DNA from: a virus | Strand: one strand, 5' to 3' | IMG/VR virus record: IMGVR_UViG_3300035180_002081 | Location: 1 to 62,116 of that record | Length of the DNA: 62,116 nt | In this document: positions 1 through 62,116 of the stretch, in pieces | Position numbering within the stretch: the stretch's first letter is position 1 | Layout of the letters: each line of letters starts with the position of its first letter | Notes under the pieces: generated by a model | The model's database searches: none | What the model saw: the letters and a program-made list of their open reading frames with translations, nothing else | Told to the model about the DNA's origin: nothing | Program-made: the position numbers and the translations under genes

Positions 1-360
1 GGCACGGCGACCGCTGGCGACGCGGGCACGGCGACCGCTGGCTACGCGGGCACGGCGACCGCTGGCTACGCGGGCACGGCGACCGCTGGCGTCAGGGGCA
101 CGGCGACCGCTGGCGACACGGGCACGGCGACCGCTGGCTACGCGGGCACGGCGACCGCTGGCGACACGGGCACGGCGACCGCTGGCGTCAGGGGCACGGC
201 GACCGCTGGCGACACGGGCACGGCGACCGCTGGCGTCAGGGGCACGGCGACCGCTGGCTACGCGGGCACGGCGACCGCTGGCTACGCGGGCACGGCGACC
301 GCTGGCTACGCGGGCACGGCGACCGCTGGCGTCAGGGGCACGGCGACCGCTGGCGAAAAT
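1..360 (+). repeat. 24-bp tandem coding repeat, 15 units
   Basis: Fifteen head-to-tail 24-bp units, each beginning ggcacggcgaccgctggc and varying only in the last six bases (tac gcg, gac gcg, gac acg, gtc agg or gaa aat). The units keep the reading frame, giving GTATAG plus two variable residues. The array continues at the other end of the window. The contig was broken inside it, so the true unit number is unknown. Confidence 0.97.
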
Positions 361-40358: not shown

Positions 40359-41258
40359 TCAGATCACTACGGCAGCGTTGGCGCGCGCTCGCGCCGCTTT
40401 GGAGCTGGTCTTCTCGACTGCGGGCGCCGCGGCGGCGGCTTCGGCCTTGAGCGCCTCTGCGCGCTCCACGGCACTCGCGCGCCCCGGCATGCACTCGGCG
40501 AGGAAGGCGCACGGTTCGCCCCACGTCGAGCACGCCGTCGGGTTGCGCGGGTAGTCGCCGCGCTCGGTGGCGGCGGCGATGAAGCGCACCGCGGCGCGCG
40601 CGGCATCGGCCTCGGCGGCCAGCTCGTCGGCGTCGAGGATGATGGGCAGGTGCCGCACCTCGCGGCCGCGCGCCTTCGTCTCGCTCATGACGAGCGTGTC
40701 GATGGCCCCCTCGAGCGGGCGGGCCGTCATCGGCTGCCGCACGACGGCGTACATGCCGAGCTGCAGCCGCTCCGCCGGCTCACCCCACGCGCTCCCCGCG
40801 CGCATCTTCGTCTTCGTCTCGCGCACTCCGATGGTCTCGACAAGGTCGATGCGGCCGCGGACGATGACGCCCTCGATGTTCGCCTCGAACGGTTCCTCGA
40901 CGGCGGCCACCGAGAGGAGCGGCACGACGTCGCGCAGGTACGCTTCGCCGATGGCAGCGCCGCGCACCGCGAGCAACGCGCGGTCCTCGTCTTCATCCTT
41001 CGCCCACGCGACCTCCGGCATGATGCCCTCGGCGAACGACGTGGCGACATCTCGGATCTCCTCGCTCGTCGGCAGTGGGAGCCCAGCGAGGATGCGACGG
41101 GGGCCCAACTCGGTGACGGCGTGGCCGACGCGTCCGAGCGCCATGCGGTGCACCATCGGCGTCCTGCGGCGGTCCACGTAGCGGAACGCGGCCTGCTTCG
41201 GGCACGTGAGGTACGCGCGCACCGAGGTGTGCGAGAACTGGAACCCGGAGCCGCTCAC
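40359..41258 (-). CDS. Cas4/RecB-like exonuclease with Fe-S cluster motif
   Basis: A 299-aa PD-(D/E)xK-type nuclease. VRGRIDLVETIGVRETKTKM holds the catalytic Asp and ExK (GRID...ETK). A cysteine near the N-terminus (YLTCPKQ) and three at about residues 245-260 (ACSTWGEPCAFLAEC) reproduce the 1+3 Cys pattern of the Cas4/AddB-type iron-sulfur cluster. An N-terminal His (LGRVGHAV) also fits. It should degrade or resect DNA ends. The last 45 residues are Ala-rich. It overlaps the neighbouring ATPase gene and belongs to a recombination set. Confidence 0.85.
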   Translation of the reverse strand: MSGSGFQFSHTSVRAYLTCPKQAAFRYVDRRRTPMVHRMALGRVGHAVTELGPRRILAGLPLPTSEEIRDVATSFAEGIMPEVAWAKDEDEDRALLAVRGAAIGEAYLRDVVPLLSVAAVEEPFEANIEGVIVRGRIDLVETIGVRETKTKMRAGSAWGEPAERLQLGMYAVVRQPMTARPLEGAIDTLVMSETKARGREVRHLPIILDADELAAEADAARAAVRFIAAATERGDYPRNPTACSTWGEPCAFLAECMPGRASAVERAEALKAEAAAAAPAVEKTSSKAARARANAAVVI

Positions 41259-42268
41259 AGCCGAACCTCCGCGTTCGGGTCGGCGACAGCGGGCGGGGAC
41301 GCGAGCGGCGGGATCGGGGTCGGCACCGTGGCGCCGTTCGTCGGCGCGCTGGCGGCGGCCGCACGGGCCTTCGCGGCCTCCACAAGCTCAGACTTGCGCC
41401 GCTTCCACGCCGACTCGAACTTCGCGCACTCGTCCGCGCTCATCTCTTTCCGCGCGCTCACGTACTTCGACCACGTGTCCTCGCAGTCGGCCTTCGACGA
41501 CATCGACGCGGCGAGGTCCATCAGGAACGGCGCGGGAGACACCGGGGCGACTGGCTTTTCCTCGGGCGCGCCGTCCATTAGCCAGGCGCTCAGCGTGTCC
41601 GCGACGTCCTTGCCGGGCTTCGGGATGACGGCGCCTGTGAGCGCCTTGCAGCGCGTCTTCTCGACGACCATCGTGTTGTCGTTCAGCATCGAGGCGAAGA
41701 GCGTGAACTCGTACTCGAGGTCGTCGCGCTGAATCACCTTCATGCCGACCTTGCGGACGACTGTCTTGTTCGTGCGCTCGTCCTTCTCCTGGACGTGCTC
41801 CATCTTCGACCGCATCGTCACGATGACGTGGCACTTCGACCGCGTGATCGCCTCAACGAGCTGGTCCTGCAGCTTGCCCGCCTCGCCCCAGGCCGTGTAG
41901 CTGTTGGCGTTTCGGTCGCGCTTCGTGATCTTGTCCTTCTCATCGAGGACGCCGTCCTTCCCCGCCCATGCGTGCGAGAGCGAGTCGATGATGATGACGT
42001 CGTAGCCCTCTGCCTCGGCCGCGTGGATGGCGTCGACGTATTCCGTCGGGTGGAACGAATCGAGGGCGAGCGTGTCGAAGTTGAACTCGTCGGCGTAGAG
42101 CGAGGCCGACTCGCGCTCCGTGTCGATGACGGCGACGCGGCCGCCGGGCACGAGGAACGAGGCGATCTTCAGCGCCGTGTACGTCTTGCCGCCGCCGGAC
42201 ACGCCGGCCAGCGCGAGGCGCAGCTTCAGTTGGTGTTTCGTCGCCTTCTTGAAAGTCTTCGGGGCCAT
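41255..42268 (-). CDS. RecA-like ATPase, Sak4-type recombinase
   Basis: The 337-aa protein has Walker A ALAGVSGGGKTYTALK (residues about 18-33), Walker B DVIIIDSLSHAW near residue 90 and a conserved RDRNANSYTAWGEAGKLQDQ segment. The RecA-core phage ATPases of the Sak4 family share this size and order and act in recombination with SSB. The C-terminal 90 residues are helical then disordered (TPIPPLASPPAVADP). An aggagg site precedes the ATG. The set SSB, Cas4-like nuclease, Sak4-like ATPase is typical of such systems. Confidence 0.82.
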   Translation of the reverse strand: MAPKTFKKATKHQLKLRLALAGVSGGGKTYTALKIASFLVPGGRVAVIDTERESASLYADEFNFDTLALDSFHPTEYVDAIHAAEAEGYDVIIIDSLSHAWAGKDGVLDEKDKITKRDRNANSYTAWGEAGKLQDQLVEAITRSKCHVIVTMRSKMEHVQEKDERTNKTVVRKVGMKVIQRDDLEYEFTLFASMLNDNTMVVEKTRCKALTGAVIPKPGKDVADTLSAWLMDGAPEEKPVAPVSPAPFLMDLAASMSSKADCEDTWSKYVSARKEMSADECAKFESAWKRRKSELVEAAKARAAAASAPTNGATVPTPIPPLASPPAVADPNAEVRL

Positions 42269-46550: not shown

Positions 46551-47090
46551 TCACCGCTTCCGGGCCGGCGCGTCCGGGTCCGGCTCGTCCGGCTGCATCG
46601 TCGAGCCTTCAAGTTGCGTACCTGGCTCCGACAGCGCCCCGGCATCGAAGTCCGCCCAGATCGCTTCGAGCCGTCGTTGGTACGCGCGAACCGTGAGCTT
46701 CGAGATGTCCTTGCCTGCAGTGAACGAGTCGTCGTGGTCGAACCAGTACCGAACCGTGGGCGGGGCGCTCTGGTAGACGCTCTCGCGCCGGACCTGTTCC
46801 TTCGGGTCGAGACCGTCGAACTCCGACGACTCGGGCGCGTGGTCCGCCGTCTCGTCGATCGGTCCGTGGCCCATGAGCTGCTCGTCCGTGATCCGTAGCG
46901 CGCGCAGCACACCGCCGAGCGTGTCGCCGTGCATCCATTTGTGGCCGTTCTCGTAGGTGGACCAGTTGGACTGGTTCACGCCGGCCGCGAGCGCCACGTC
47001 CTCCTGCTTGAGGCCACGAAGATCGCGCCACCTCTTCAGCCGAATACCTCGACGCTTCAGCTCGTCCGGGTCGATTCGTTTCGATGCCAC
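46551..47090 (-). CDS. Phage repressor, XRE-type HTH
   Basis: The 179-aa protein has an XRE helix-turn-helix at residues about 15-65: RLKRWRDLRGLKQEDVALAA, GVNQSNWSTYENGHKW, TLGGVLRALRITDEQLMGHG. The C-terminal 110 residues are helical (VRAYQRRLEAIWADFDAG) with an acidic/proline tail, and contain no Ser-Lys LexA-type peptidase. GTG 47090 is the preferred start; an in-frame ATG at 47159 with an agaagga site is possible but lies inside the promoter region. A tatgtt six bases before the GTG suggests a leaderless transcript. It should bind tggtat operators. Confidence 0.82.
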   Translation of the reverse strand: MASKRIDPDELKRRGIRLKRWRDLRGLKQEDVALAAGVNQSNWSTYENGHKWMHGDTLGGVLRALRITDEQLMGHGPIDETADHAPESSEFDGLDPKEQVRRESVYQSAPPTVRYWFDHDDSFTAGKDISKLTVRAYQRRLEAIWADFDAGALSEPGTQLEGSTMQPDEPDPDAPARKR

Positions 47091-47096
47091 GCGAGA

Positions 47097-47181
47097 AACA
47101 TAGGGGAATCGAGCGCTTCTGTGGGCGCCTACCGATGACCCCTTGCGCACTGATTCCATCTGGTATATTCCTTCTGGTATG
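47097..47181. promoter_or_regulatory. Divergent switch region between repressor and Cro-like gene
   Basis: Rightward: ttgcgc (47143-47148) and an extended -10 tggtatatt (47161-47169). Leftward: tatgtt (47102-47097) ends six bases before the repressor GTG. The sequence tggtat occurs at 47161 and again at 47175, 14 bases apart, the second overlapping the Cro-like ATG (47179). The same half-site builds the palindrome at 45012-45045. The arrangement fits an operator pair bound by the repressor and the Cro-like protein. Confidence 0.62.
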
Positions 47182-47385
47182 GCATCACCGAACGAACGTC
47201 TGGCTGCGTGGCGCTTGGGCGAGGGTCTGACGCTCGTCGCGGCGGCGGAGTTGCTCGGCACGAAGTGGTGGAGGCTGCGCCGGTACGAGAACGGCGAGCG
47301 GTCGCCCGACATCTCGTTCGCCGTCGCGGCGCAGCGCGTGGTGGGCATCCCGGTCGAGGCGTGGGCGAAGTCGGAGGCCGCCTGA
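47179..47385 (+). CDS. Cro-like HTH protein, 68 aa
   Basis: ASPNERLAAWRLGEGLTLVA begins a compact HTH: VAAAELLGTKWWRLRRYENG, then DISFAVAAQRVVGIPVEAWA. The pattern is XRE-like, the size is right for Cro. The ATG at 47179 lies in the operator and about 10 bases after a -10 element, so its transcript may be leaderless; no Shine-Dalgarno is visible. An upstream TTG (47143) would start inside the -35 and is rejected. It is divergent to the repressor. Confidence 0.78.
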   Translation: MASPNERLAAWRLGEGLTLVAAAELLGTKWWRLRRYENGERSPDISFAVAAQRVVGIPVEAWAKSEAA

Positions 47386-47744
47386 TGCCCCCCGCGCTCA
47401 CGCTCCCCGCGTTGCGCTCGCGCGTGTCGGAGCTGCCGCCGCTGCTGCTGGTGGTGCGTCCGCCGCCGCAAACGAGTGACCGCAAGTTGCGGTCGGCGAC
47501 GGTTTTTTGCCGATTGGAGGAAGCGTTGGCGCCTGTTGCCGACGCGAAGGAGCCGCACTCGATGTTGACGACCTCGGAAGCCATGCAGTTGTTGGGTGTG
47601 AGTCGTAGCGCGCTGATGAGCGCGATCAAGCTGGGGTCGATCCCGGCGGTGAAGGTGGGCACGCGGATCTGGCGTATTCCGCGGGAGGCGATCGATCGGA
47701 TGCTGACGGGCAAGCCGGCGGTTCCGGCCGAGGTGTCGAAGTGA
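47385..47744 (+). CDS. Excisionase-type HTH protein
   Basis: The C-terminal 60 residues are an excisionase/MerR-type domain: LTTSEAMQLLGVSRSALMSA then SIPAVKVGTRIWRIPREAID. The ATG at 47385 overlaps the previous stop and gives 119 aa with a Pro/Leu-rich N-terminus. A TTG at 47526 behind ggagg may be the real start (72 aa), because a hairpin and T6 run lie just before it and codon use changes there: ttg, ggt, cgt and agt are frequent, unlike the rest of the genome. It could be the directionality factor of the integrase or a regulator. Confidence 0.65.
   Translation: MPPALTLPALRSRVSELPPLLLVVRPPPQTSDRKLRSATVFCRLEEALAPVADAKEPHSMLTTSEAMQLLGVSRSALMSAIKLGSIPAVKVGTRIWRIPREAIDRMLTGKPAVPAEVSK
47478..47508 (+). 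terminator. Perfect palindrome followed by T6 inside the excisionase-type ORF
   Basis: gaccgcaa (47478-47485) and ttgcggtc (47487-47494) are separated by one base; T6 follows at 47503-47508 and the ggagg ribosome site at 47516-47520. The geometry can serve as a terminator or attenuator for transcripts from the switch promoter, or as a protein-binding palindrome. Confidence 0.5.
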
Positions 47745-50443: not shown

Positions 50444-50520
50444 GCACGATCGTCGTCGGTGTGCTGCTGGCGGTTGCGTCGCTCGGCGTGGTTGTGTGGG
50501 CCGCGGAGAGTGCCAGATGA
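50440..50520 (+). CDS. Small hydrophobic protein, 26 aa
   Basis: ATG at 50440 has a strong acaggaggg ribosome site and overlaps the previous stop; its own stop overlaps the next ATG (ATGA). The product is one transmembrane helix (STIVVGVLLAVASLGVVVWA) with an acidic then basic end. Such micro-proteins are common in phage early regions and easily missed. Confidence 0.5.
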   Translation: MSTIVVGVLLAVASLGVVVWAAESAR

Positions 50521-50864
50521 GCGAAGACCTTTCGGCCGTTGCAGAAGCGTTCGCACGAGTCGTCCGTTCGAGCATGCCGCAGACGCCGGCCTGCTACTCG
50601 TCGAGCGCCCTGCCGCCCGGCTACCGCACCTCCGCCGGCTTCGCCCGCGCGTGCCGGCAGGGGCGCGTTCCCGGCGCCGTGAAGCGCGGGCGCGCCTGGG
50701 TCGTGACCGTCGAGAGCTACCTCCGTCGAGACGCGGTCGAGGTCGTGCCGCGCAAGCGCAGCGCCCGGCCGAGCGCGAAGGCTGAACAGCGCGTGCTCGC
50801 GAACCTCGCCTCCCGCGGACTCACCATCGCCGAACCGGCAGTCGAGCAGGCCAATGCCGCGTAA
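50517..50864 (+). CDS. HTH protein preceding the integrase, 115 aa
   Basis: ATG overlaps the micro-protein stop. Residues about 35-75 read YRTSAGFARACRQGRVPGAVKRGRAWVV..., an excisionase-like helix-turn-helix with wing (AGFARACRQGRVP then RGRAWVVTVESYL), and the last part is basic and helical (RSARPSAKAEQRVLANLASR). The gene overlaps the integrase start by 11 bases, which makes it the better excisionase/RDF candidate by position than the gene at 47385. Confidence 0.6.
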   Translation: MSEDLSAVAEAFARVVRSSMPQTPACYSSSALPPGYRTSAGFARACRQGRVPGAVKRGRAWVVTVESYLRRDAVEVVPRKRSARPSAKAEQRVLANLASRGLTIAEPAVEQANAA

Positions 50865-52356
50865 GGCAACTGGCCAGATCGTCGAGCGCGGTGGGAAGCC
50901 CTACGTGCGCGCGACATTCCCTAACAAGCAGCGGCGCCTATTGCCGCTGACGATTGGAGCGAGCGCCGAACAGTTGGCGATGGAAGCGCGCATCCTCGCG
51001 CGTGCCGCGCGTGCCGGTCAGATCAAGCTCGTCGCCGTGCCGGAGCCGGCGCCCGCGTTCGAGACGGTGTCGAAGTGGTGGGCGCGCATGCTCACGATGA
51101 AGGAGGGCAGGGGGCTCAAGACGGTGGGGGACATGCGCGGCCGGTTCAAGAACTGGATCGAGCCTGTCATCGGCAGCCTTCCGATCCACGCCGTCACGGC
51201 GGACGAGCTGCGGCGCGTCGTCACGAAGCTGGACGCCGCGATCGAGGGCGAGAGCATCACGGCCAAGACCGCGTCGAACGTGTGGGGCGAGGTGACCGGC
51301 GCGTTCCGCGAGGCGTGCGCGTCGAAGCATGACGACCTGCGCGTGCGAACCGACAACCCGACGGAGAAGGTGACCGGTCCCGAGGACGGTGCCGAGCGCG
51401 AGGGCCCCGTGCTCTACCCCGACGAGTTCCTGCAGCTCGTCGCGTGCGAGGCGGTGCCGCTCGCCCGACGCCGGTACTACGTCGCCGCCGTCTACGTTGG
51501 GCCGCGGTCGAACGAGATCGCCGCCATCACGGCCGCGTCTCTCGACCTCGCGCACCTGACGCTGACGATCGACAAGCAGCGCGACCGCAAGACGAACGCG
51601 GACCGCGCGACGAAGACGAAGCGCACGCGCACGTTCCCGATTGAGCCTGCGGCCGTGCCGTTCTTCCGGATGCTCGCCGCCGAGCGTCCCGAGGGGCGCC
51701 TCTTCGACATGCCGCCGGACGAGCTGCGCGCGAAGCTCCTGCGCGAAGACCTGCGCACCGCGAAGCTCGAGCGGCCGGCGCTCTACCACGACGACGCGAC
51801 CCGCCACGGCCTGTGGCTCCACGACCTGCGGCACACGTCGCTGGTGTGGATGGCGATGCGCGGCGACGACCACCTACGCATCCAGTTCCGTGGAGGACAT
51901 AGCGACATGACCACGACGCAGCGCTACATCGCGCACGCGCGCAACCTGCCGGGCGGCATCGGAGGGCCCTTTCCGGCCCTTCCTGACACCGTCGAAAAGG
52001 CACCGGAAAAGGCACCGTCAGTGGTCGAGCCGCAGGAAGGCCAGGTCTTTCCTGCGGTGTTGGGTGGCGTCCCCAACGGGATTCGAACCCTTGACTCGGC
52101 TTGCCCCGTCGCCTTTGAGCACGTTTCGCAGCCTGACGCAGATGTTACGGGGGGTCCAGACGGCTCTAAAGGCACCGGAAAAGGCACCGGGAATGTGCCT
52201 ATTCAGCCCCTCCGGCTGACGCCCAGCGCCATCAGGAACGCGCTCGACGCTGGCGCCGTGCTGGAGGCCGTCGACCGAGCCAAGGCTGGTGACGAGCCCG
52301 CTGTGCTCGCCATCCTGACCGACCTCGCGCGCCGACATGTAGGAGGTGCGTCGTGA
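50854..52356 (+). CDS. int: Tyrosine integrase carrying attP in its 3' part
   Basis: The 500-aa recombinase has an arm-binding N-domain (RKATGQIVERGGKPYVRA), a core-binding domain about 70-185 and a catalytic domain with Arg218 (YVGPRSNE), Lys near 255, His323-x-x-Arg326 (LHDLRHTS), His349 (GGHSDMT) and Tyr358 (TQRYIAH). Catalysis is complete by residue 360. The next 140 residues, Pro/Gly-rich, pass through the tRNA-like core (52065-52090) and repeat arms, so the 3' end of the gene is attP itself. Integration replaces the C-terminus. Mx8 of Myxococcus is known to work this way. Confidence 0.92.
   Translation: MPRKATGQIVERGGKPYVRATFPNKQRRLLPLTIGASAEQLAMEARILARAARAGQIKLVAVPEPAPAFETVSKWWARMLTMKEGRGLKTVGDMRGRFKNWIEPVIGSLPIHAVTADELRRVVTKLDAAIEGESITAKTASNVWGEVTGAFREACASKHDDLRVRTDNPTEKVTGPEDGAEREGPVLYPDEFLQLVACEAVPLARRRYYVAAVYVGPRSNEIAAITAASLDLAHLTLTIDKQRDRKTNADRATKTKRTRTFPIEPAAVPFFRMLAAERPEGRLFDMPPDELRAKLLREDLRTAKLERPALYHDDATRHGLWLHDLRHTSLVWMAMRGDDHLRIQFRGGHSDMTTTQRYIAHARNLPGGIGGPFPALPDTVEKAPEKAPSVVEPQEGQVFPAVLGGVPNGIRTLDSACPVAFEHVSQPDADVTGGPDGSKGTGKGTGNVPIQPLRLTPSAIRNALDAGAVLEAVDRAKAGDEPAVLAILTDLARRHVGGAS
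51995..52190 (+). repeat. Integrase arm-type repeats flanking attP
   Basis: Two tandem copies of aaaaggcaccg(g) lie at 51995-52017 and two more at 52168-52190, in the same orientation, on both sides of the attP core (about 48 and 78 bp away). Their spacing of 11-12 bp and placement match arm-binding sites of lambda-type integrases. They also code the Lys-Ala-Pro and Gly-Thr-Gly-Lys stretches of the integrase tail. Confidence 0.75.
52065..52090 (-). other. attP core identical in form to the 3' end of tRNA-Glu
   Basis: On the minus strand the 26 bases 52090-52065 read as the 3' end of a tRNA: T-loop ttcgaat with stem bases ggg/ccc, then cccgt, acceptor strand tggggac, g and cca. Acceptor tggggac + g + cca is that of bacterial tRNA-Glu (5' gtcccc). 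Integration would restore the host tRNA 3' end. The core sits in the integrase reading frame at residues about 404-413. Confidence 0.82.
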
Positions 52357-52982
52357 CCTGCGCACCGTCACCGGGCGCGCGCCTCCTCGCGCAGACCGTC
52401 GACCCGGACGGCCAGCTCGGCGGTGTCCGTCGTGCGGTCCTCGCCGAGCGGCTCATCCGCATGTCCAACCCGGACGCGAACGGCTGCCGCATCTTCTCCG
52501 GCGCGGGGCGGGGGAGCGGGTACGGCGCGGTCAAGGTCGGCCGGCGAACGATGGACGCGCACCGGGCGGCGTTCCTCGTCTTCGTCGGCCCCATCCCTGA
52601 CGGCGAACTCGTCTGCCATACCTGCGACGTGCGGCGCTGCATCGAGCCCTCGCACCTGTTCCCAGGCACGCACAAGACCAACCACGACGACATGGTGGCG
52701 AAGGGCCGGCGCGTTCCCGGCGAGGCTATCTCGCGCCGCTGCATCGAGCGCGGGACGCGGCCGCCGGTGGTGCAGAAGCTGACCAACGAGCAGGTCGCGG
52801 AGGTCCGCGCCTCGGTCGCGCGCGGCGAGTCTCGCAAGGCCGTCGCTGAACGGTTCGGCGTCTGCGTATCGACCGTGACGAAGATCGCGAACGGGAAACA
52901 CCGGCCACCCGTCGACCACGCTGCGCTCGACGCAACCGCCGAACTGCACGCTGCCGACGCGCTCGGCAAGGGGGACGCGTGA
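52353..52982 (+). CDS. HNH endonuclease family protein with HTH
   Basis: The 209-aa protein has an HNH core of the phage His-Me type: AHRAAFLVFVGPIPDGE, LVCHTCDVRRCIEPSHLF, PGTHKTNHDDMVAKG. This CxxC-type HNH binds a metal and nicks or cuts DNA. The C-terminal 70 residues add an HTH (LTNEQVAEVRASVARGESRK, AVAERFGVCVSTVTKIANGK), a combination found in many phage free-standing HNH proteins. GTG 52353 follows aggagg and overlaps the integrase end. It may be a homing endonuclease. Confidence 0.82.
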   Translation: MTCAPSPGARLLAQTVDPDGQLGGVRRAVLAERLIRMSNPDANGCRIFSGAGRGSGYGAVKVGRRTMDAHRAAFLVFVGPIPDGELVCHTCDVRRCIEPSHLFPGTHKTNHDDMVAKGRRVPGEAISRRCIERGTRPPVVQKLTNEQVAEVRASVARGESRKAVAERFGVCVSTVTKIANGKHRPPVDHAALDATAELHAADALGKGDA

Positions 52983-60921: not shown

Positions 60922-60994
60922 AGCGGTGAGATGGCTCCGGCGAGCCTGTCGGAGTCATGATCCGACGCGGGTGGTTCGACTCCACCCACCGCTA
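60922..60994 (+). tRNA. tRNA with anticodon CAU (Met or Ile2)
   Basis: The 73 bases fold as a tRNA: acceptor agcggtg/caccgct (7 perfect pairs), D stem ggct/agcc with an ccggcg loop, anticodon stem tcgga/tccga with loop gtcatga (anticodon cat at 60956-60958), variable cgcg, T stem ggtgg/ccacc with loop ttcgact, and discriminator a. No CCA is encoded (ccga follows) and base 8 is A instead of T, so it is slightly degenerate. The anticodon is Met-type, or Ile if modified by TilS. Confidence 0.75.
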
Positions 60995-61118
60995 CCGAGT
61001 CCCCCCGTGCCGAGCCATGCGAATGGCCACCCAAAGCCGGCAGGGCGACGGGGAGACTCGCTGTTGTCGTCGACTCGTTTCGCGCGCTGACGTGCGCGCG
61101 CGCGGAGAAGGATCTGGA

Positions 61119-61533: not shown

Positions 61534-62116
61534 ATGGCCAAGTCCAAGCCTGCTCGCAAGTCCGTGGCGAAGAAGAAGCCCGCGCCCAAGTTCACCGCCG
61601 CCGCGCCGGTCTCGGCCACCTCGGCGAAGCCTGCGACCGTCCTCGTACTGCGCACGTGCATGGCCGACATGGGCGGCACCCACTCGAGCGCGCGGCGCTT
61701 CATCTGGCCCGCCAGCGGCCCCGTGGCGGCGCCCGATTGGGACCCGTCGCCCGTGTGCGGCCACGGCCTGCACGGCCTGCTGTGGGGCGCCGGTGACGCC
61801 GGGATGCTCCGCTGGCAGGCCGACTCGAAGTGGCTCGTGGTCGAGGTGGTGGCGAGCGACGTCGTCTCGCTCGACGACGGCGCCAAGGTGAAGTTCCCGC
61901 GCGGCGTCGTCGTGTTCTGCGGCGACCAGAAGGCCGCGAGCGACTACATCGCCGAGCACGCGCCGAAGGGAACGATCGTGCACGGCGCGACGGCGACCGC
62001 TGGCTACGCGGGCACGGCGACCGCTGGCTACGCGGGCACGGCGACCGCTGGCGACACGGGCACGGCGACCGCTGGCTACGCGGGCACGGCGACCGCTGGC
62101 TACGCGGGCACGGCGA
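61534..62116 (+). CDS. N-terminal part of the DUF7666-like repeat protein (continues at 1)
   Basis: The ATG follows caggagcgat. A Lys/Ala/Pro-rich start (AKSKPARKSVAKKKPAPK) precedes a globular domain of about 130 residues: TVLVLRTCMADMGGTHSSAR, RRFIWPASGPVAAPDWDPSP, CGHGLHGLLWGAGDAGMLRW and SKWLVVEVVASDVVSLDDGA. The octapeptide repeats begin at 61987. The globular part (HGLLWGxGD, WLVVEV) is what I recall as the DUF7666 domain. No signal peptide is visible, so it is a cytoplasmic or virion protein. It ends at the contig break and resumes at 1-528 after removing a 10-base overlap. Confidence 0.78.
   Translation, partial: MAKSKPARKSVAKKKPAPKFTAAAPVSATSAKPATVLVLRTCMADMGGTHSSARRFIWPASGPVAAPDWDPSPVCGHGLHGLLWGAGDAGMLRWQADSKWLVVEVVASDVVSLDDGAKVKFPRGVVVFCGDQKAASDYIAEHAPKGTIVHGATATAGYAGTATAGYAGTATAGDTGTATAGYAGTATAGYAGTA
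61987..62116 (+). repeat. Start of the 24-bp tandem coding repeat
   Basis: About five and a half 24-bp units of the GTATAG type, continuing the array at 1-360. The last ten bases, ggcacggcga, repeat the first ten of the window. Removing this overlap puts the two parts in one frame. Confidence 0.95.

What the first reader, a model, noticed from the sequence alone, without database searches (positions are those of the whole stretch)
50854..52356. attP inside the integrase gene, as in Myxococcus phage Mx8
A 26-base match to the 3' end of tRNA-Glu lies in frame in the integrase, flanked by two pairs of arm repeats. Integration would restore the tRNA and exchange the integrase C-terminus for host sequence (antisense to the tRNA body), giving a different protein in the lysogen. 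In Mx8, intP is converted to a less active form on integration; the same logic would stabilise lysogeny here. The catalytic Tyr358 remains in both forms.
Basis: partly seen in the sequence, partly recalled or inferred. Interest (0 to 1): 0.85.

Follow-up and report, generated by a model that had tools for sequence, protein, structure and literature searches.

The report
Phage integrase altered by its own integration
In this myxobacterial phage, and in a whole family of related elements, the DNA site used to insert into a bacterial tRNA gene lies inside the integrase gene itself, so insertion cuts off the enzyme's tail, which in the relatives is a conserved helical piece, and swaps in bacterial sequence; this suggests a built-in switch that works differently before and after insertion.

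Summary
The 500-aa tyrosine integrase (50854-52356) contains at 52065-52090 an exact 26-bp copy of the antisense 3' end of tRNA-Glu, flanked by two perfect 22-bp arm repeats (51996-52017, 52168-52189). Its closest relatives (37-55% identity), in Myxococcota genomes, almost all end antisense inside tRNA-Glu genes. Across the wider family, all 28 integrases with a tRNA or tmRNA gene just downstream read into it, while the other two frames are usually closed.

New point: in 13 elements with both ends on one contig, the excised junction rejoined in silico keeps the frame open for about 80-160 codons beyond the core. It encodes a conserved helix-helix module under purifying selection, which integration replaces with antisense-tRNA sequence. 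The window shows the same layout: disordered linker, then helices at pLDDT about 90. Its own tail is not significantly matched by the module profile.

So this is a phage-form (attP) integrase of an Mx8-like self-altering type, in a subfamily distinct from Mx8, and the arrangement is family-wide. The regulatory effect is inferred; change of activity is known only for Mx8. Novelty: new variant of a known kind.

The parts
50854..52356 (+). integrase gene, attP (excised/virion) form, 500 aa
51925..51927 (+). catalytic Tyr358 codon, before the core, so kept in both forms
   Evidence: Y358 invariant
51996..52017 (+). P-arm: two GGCACCG sites 12 bp apart, 22-bp copy 1
52065..52090 (-). attP core: exact 26-bp 3' end of tRNA-Glu (T-arm, acceptor, CCA), antisense to int
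52168..52189 (+). P'-arm: 22-bp copy 2, read in a different codon frame
52009..52239 (+). codons 386-462: linker predicted disordered; holds the end of the P arm, the core and the P' arm
   Evidence: pLDDT 28-38
52222..52338 (+). codons 457-495: predicted C-terminal helices (457-463, 466-477, 481-495), the part cut off by integration
   Evidence: pLDDT about 90; same topology in L153; module profile not significant in the window
50496..50864 (+). 122-aa ORF overlapping the int start, possible excisionase (weak: PHROG excisionase E 0.08), placed like Mx8 uoi
52353..52982 (+). HNH endonuclease ORF overlapping the int stop by 4 nt; a neighbour, probably not part of the switch

Best explanation
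The window is the free (attP) form of a temperate contractile-tailed phage of Myxococcota. Its tyrosine integrase binds paired arm sites on both sides of a 26-bp core and recombines that core with the 3' end of a host tRNA-Glu gene (inferred from relatives). The core and the P' arm lie inside the integrase gene, in a disordered linker between the catalytic domain and a C-terminal helical piece. Integration leaves the catalytic part next to the restored tRNA with a host-encoded antisense-tRNA tail and moves the C-terminal piece to the far end of the prophage, without the integrase start. In relatives that piece is a conserved module, kept in frame and under purifying selection, so full-length integrase can be made only from the circular form (shown in silico). 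The likely use, inferred and by analogy with Mx8, is a state-dependent switch: the full-length enzyme favours integration after infection, and the shortened enzyme is less active or altered, which holds the prophage in place until Xis and fresh expression act; excision restores the full-length gene.
For: Core and arms. Target: relatives L046 (55%), L047, L076, L077, L079, L064, L078 end in tRNA-Glu genes. Census: 28/28 integrases with tDNA within 500 nt read into it; int frame 0 stops in 1147 codons against 18 and 30 in the other frames. 11 two-ended elements plus 2 more, one on an 11.26-Mb contig: the excised-form tail is open in the int frame in every one. Leave-one-out profiles find the tail in the int frame (E 3e-22 to 5e-5; L079 0.015); the two later ones score 3e-10 and 0.0015 against a profile without them. 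dN/dS of one tail pair about 0.38-0.43. Among 7771 six-frame segments of 14 contigs the profile hits only the far ends. Native attP forms in viral contigs: L153, L155. Structure: disordered linker then helices in the window and L153. Mx8 precedent: PMC4701971, PMC6070905.
Against: The window's own tail is not significantly matched by the module profile (E 0.07-0.29), and being open for 87 codons is alone not improbable (about 16% by composition). No lysogen of this phage, and no activity data for either form. One subgroup of the family (L150-152, L154, L156) has int stopping before a sense-oriented tRNA-Glu end, so overlap is not obligatory. A possible other end of L047's element, on a separate contig (L197), stops 7 codons after the core in that frame (pairing unknown). 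Most genomes are metagenome assemblies.
Confidence: 0.72

Rival explanations
1. Passive compactness: the integrase ORF simply runs into an adjacent attP. The tail has no function, and its replacement on integration has no consequence.
For: All three phases of the core relative to the int frame occur and lysogen tails differ widely, so the core-encoded peptide itself is not conserved. One subgroup has att outside the gene. The window tail is not matched by the module profile.
Against: 28/28 int frames open into the tDNA while other frames carry stops; 13/13 rejoined attP frames open beyond the core; conserved module found by leave-one-out profiles in the int frame; dN/dS about 0.4; confident helices in two attP forms only 30% identical.
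Confidence: 0.18
2. The downstream module is a separate small gene (a directionality or repressor-like protein) that only happens to lie in frame and may be made on its own in the lysogen.
For: It lies at the far end of the integrated element, where it could in principle be expressed from its own start; it has no Pfam match, so its role is open.
Against: In all 13 rejoined junctions it is in the same frame as int with no stop between; a separate gene would match the frame by chance in 1 of 3 cases. In native attP contigs L153 and L155 it is continuous with int.
Confidence: 0.08
3. The fused lysogen tail acts mainly as a stability tag, so integration controls integrase amount rather than activity.
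For: The L046 lysogen form ends ...FEPVLAA, like an ssrA tag; mycobacteriophage BPs (PMC4557955, found) is a known case where the attachment site affects a phage regulator.
Against: Other lysogen tails end in unrelated residues, so no general tag is seen.
Confidence: 0.05

Closest known systems
Myxococcus phage Mx8 Int (attP inside int; Tojo 1996, Magrini 1999, read through PMC6070905 and PMC4701971)
   Same: Tyrosine integrase of a myxobacterial phage; attP core inside int; 112 residues follow the core-like peptide and are replaced on integration; small HTH excisionase gene overlapping the int start.
   Different: Different integrase subfamily (no tblastn match); no hit of the module profile in Mx8; the target here is tRNA-Glu. 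In Mx8 the change of activity was measured; here it is not.
SSV-type 'suicidal' integrases of archaea (review PMC8371274)
   Same: Attachment site inside the integrase gene, tRNA target, gene split by integration.
   Different: There the split separates the catalytic domain and both parts are inactive; here the catalytic part stays whole and only a C-terminal piece is lost. The review calls self-disrupting recombinases exclusively archaeal.
Mycobacteriophage BPs integration-dependent immunity (PMC4557955)
   Same: attP inside a regulatory gene, so integration changes the product.
   Different: The altered gene is the repressor, not the integrase.
Streptococcal ICEs in rumA (PMC4701971)
   Same: att site inside the element's own integrase gene; C-terminus exchanged on integration.
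   Different: Serine integrase and a protein-coding target gene.

Membership tests
Tyrosine recombinase / phage integrase | R-K-H-R-H-Y catalytic residues and catalytic-domain fold | tested here: met
   R218 K254 H323 R326 H349 Y358 invariant; PF00589; lambda Int and Tn1549 Int are top fold matches
Mx8-type self-altering integrase system | attP core inside the integrase ORF, frame continuing beyond it | tested here: met
Mx8-type self-altering integrase system | tDNA target restored on integration, new C-terminus made | tested here: inconclusive
   Met for relatives; for the window only predicted (425-521 aa lysogen forms)
Mx8-type self-altering integrase system | Lysogen form less active or altered | not testable with these tools
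   Published for Mx8 only (PMC4701971, PMC6070905)
Mx8 Int subfamily (by sequence) | Detectable sequence similarity to Mx8 Int | tested here: not met
   no Mx8 match at E 1e-5
SSV-type suicidal integrase | Integration separates the catalytic domain from the rest | tested here: not met
   All catalytic residues lie before the core
Myxococcota module-bearing integrases (defined here) | Post-core tail matched by the module profile | tested here: inconclusive
   Window tail E 0.07-0.29; same predicted helices as L153

The most novel reading that the evidence does not exclude
A large family of Myxococcota phages and small islands uses a two-state integrase: a detachable C-terminal helical module, encoded beyond attP, is joined to the enzyme only in the circular form and is cut off by integration into tRNA or tmRNA genes. 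This would be a bacterial system of self-altering integrases, with the attachment site acting as a built-in on/off junction. Its generality and module appear undescribed in the open-access papers searched.
Probability: 0.5. Interest if true: 0.75.

Novelty: new variant of a known kind. Interest (0 to 1): 0.62.

Why it matters
Att sites inside their own integrase gene were described as found in 'very few' elements (PMC4701971), and self-disrupting recombinases as exclusively archaeal (PMC8371274). Here the layout recurs across a family on many tRNA/tmRNA targets, with a conserved piece that exists only in the excised form. That makes the old Mx8 puzzle (why place attP inside int?) testable by comparing full-length, lysogen and cut forms from many natural pairs. 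It also warns that integrase genes annotated in Myxococcota genomes are often the altered lysogen form, with a tail that is really antisense tRNA.

Tried and rejected
Close-relative scans of viral contigs with the whole integrase and with its catalytic part gave none or only a distant unrelated family (L013-L020). A first DNA pattern had an off-by-one error and found nothing; the corrected one worked. No match in plasmids; no near DNA match in phages. The viral contig L021 ends at its core, but its other end is not the matching att end. No left end found for the prophages L046, L076, L078. A separate-gene reading of the module and a degradation-tag reading were considered and rated low. Magrini 1999 on Mx8 is not held; the Mx8 facts come from reviews. 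The 11 viral contigs with the same 26-mer are mostly other att sites on tRNA-Glu and carry no relative of this integrase.

Full report
OBSERVATION. The ORF 50854-52356 is a 500-aa tyrosine integrase. At 52065-52090 it contains the exact reverse complement of the 26 bases at the 3' end of Myxococcota tRNA-Glu(TTC) genes, and nothing else in the window is a tRNA-Glu gene. Identity with the host gene ends sharply at both ends of the 26-mer. Two perfect 22-bp repeats lie 47 bp before and 77 bp after the core, each with two GGCACCG units 12 bp apart; 0 of 100 shuffles gave so long a shared repeat. They are read in different codon frames, so they look like DNA sites.

GENOME. The record is 62,116 bp, 70% GC, with a contractile-tail set (TerL, portal, head, sheath, baseplate). 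Both ends are the same 24-bp tandem repeat, which suggests a circular or concatemeric molecule opened in the array, hence the free form. A Sak4-like protein is 50% identical to one of Mx8.

RELATIVES. A degenerate DNA pattern for the catalytic motif found 23 loci in bacterial genomes, all titled Myxococcales, Polyangiaceae, Myxococcaceae or Deltaproteobacteria. Protein searches of Myxococcota genomes added more. Close relatives L046 (55%), L047, L076, L077, L079, L064 and L078 end antisense inside tRNA-Glu genes; exceptions among the close ones are L086 (tRNA-Leu) and L143 (no tDNA seen). Others use tRNA-Leu, Asp, Ser, SeC, Gly, Val, Gln and tmRNA.

CENSUS. Of 61 non-redundant members, 28 have a tDNA within 500 nt, and all 28 read into it. 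From the end of the conserved domain to 20 nt inside the tDNA, the int frame has 0 stops in 1147 codons; the other two frames have 18 and 30. The composition-based chance of 28 open frames is about 10^-15, though coding bias makes that figure only indicative. All three phases of the core relative to the int frame occur.

EXCISED FORM. For 11 elements (6-18 kb) a direct-repeat core of 21-50 bp was found at the far end; two more followed, one on an 11.26-Mb contig. Joining the two core copies gives the excised junction. In all 13 the int frame continues for about 80-160 codons. Profiles built without each element find its tail in the int frame (E 3e-22 to 5e-5, L079 0.015); the two later ones score 3e-10 and 0.0015. 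One closely related pair has dN/dS 0.38-0.43. The module has no Pfam match. A distant integrase (L075, 29% identity to the window) carries it too. Two viral contigs show the form naturally: L153 (tRNA-SeC-like core) and L155; their tails score only E 0.14 and 0.011 against the profile.

WINDOW TAIL. The profile does not match it significantly (E 0.07-0.29), although it ranks first and aligns to the same helix pair. The structure model has a confident catalytic part (1-385), a disordered linker (386-462) and C-terminal helices at pLDDT about 90. L153, 30% identical, gives the same layout. I therefore think the window has the module, but do not count it as shown.

LYSOGEN FORM. With the four host tRNA-Glu genes that carry the exact core, the predicted lysogen protein is 425, 425, 494 or 521 aa, with GVPNGIRTRV across the core. 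Tyr358 and all catalytic residues stay.

MECHANISM. Shown in silico: att layout, target in relatives, C-terminal exchange, in-frame conserved module in relatives. Inferred: that this phage integrates at tRNA-Glu, that both forms are translated, and that they differ in activity. Mx8 is the precedent: 112 residues replaced by 13, lower activity (PMC4701971), or altered specificity as PMC6070905 puts it.

COMPARISON. Works like Mx8; not the Mx8 subfamily (no module hit in Mx8). Differs from SSV-type suicidal integrases because the catalytic part survives (PMC8371274). Nearest solved folds are lambda Int and Tn1549 Int.

CAVEATS. One subgroup keeps att outside the gene; most genomes are metagenome assemblies; L197 may be an end without a module; literature was limited to open-access papers.

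Noticed in passing
window 1-356 and 61990-62116: The same 24-bp tandem repeat (14.8 and 5.3 copies) at both ends: the record was probably opened inside a repeat array of a circular or concatemeric genome.
   Followed up: partly
L012:11493-13034: A serine integrase (PF00239, PF07508) whose ORF runs into the same tRNA-Glu 26-mer at the contig end; serine integrases are not known to target tDNAs according to PMC4383910.
   Followed up: partly
L150, L151, L152, L154, L156: Members of the same integrase family in which int stops just before a sense-oriented tRNA-Glu 3' end, so att lies outside the gene: a natural contrast group.
   Followed up: partly
L079, L057, L055, L052, L094, L082, L056, L062, L070, L075, L077, L161, L166: The two-ended elements are only 6-18 kb, smaller than a typical tailed phage: perhaps satellites or small islands.
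   Followed up: no
L046 int end: The lysogen-form integrase ends ...FEPVLAA, resembling an ssrA tag; other members do not.
   Followed up: no
window 60922-60996: A tRNA-Met(cat) gene carried by the phage.
   Followed up: no
window 41255-42268: Sak4-like protein 50% identical to a Mx8 protein (at Mx8 46969-47691), the best match of the window to a known myxophage.
   Followed up: no
relatives' attP arms, e.g. L055, L057, L082: Relatives carry tandem arm sites 12 bp apart before the core and inverted copies after it, whereas the window has direct copies on both sides (read by eye).
   Followed up: partly
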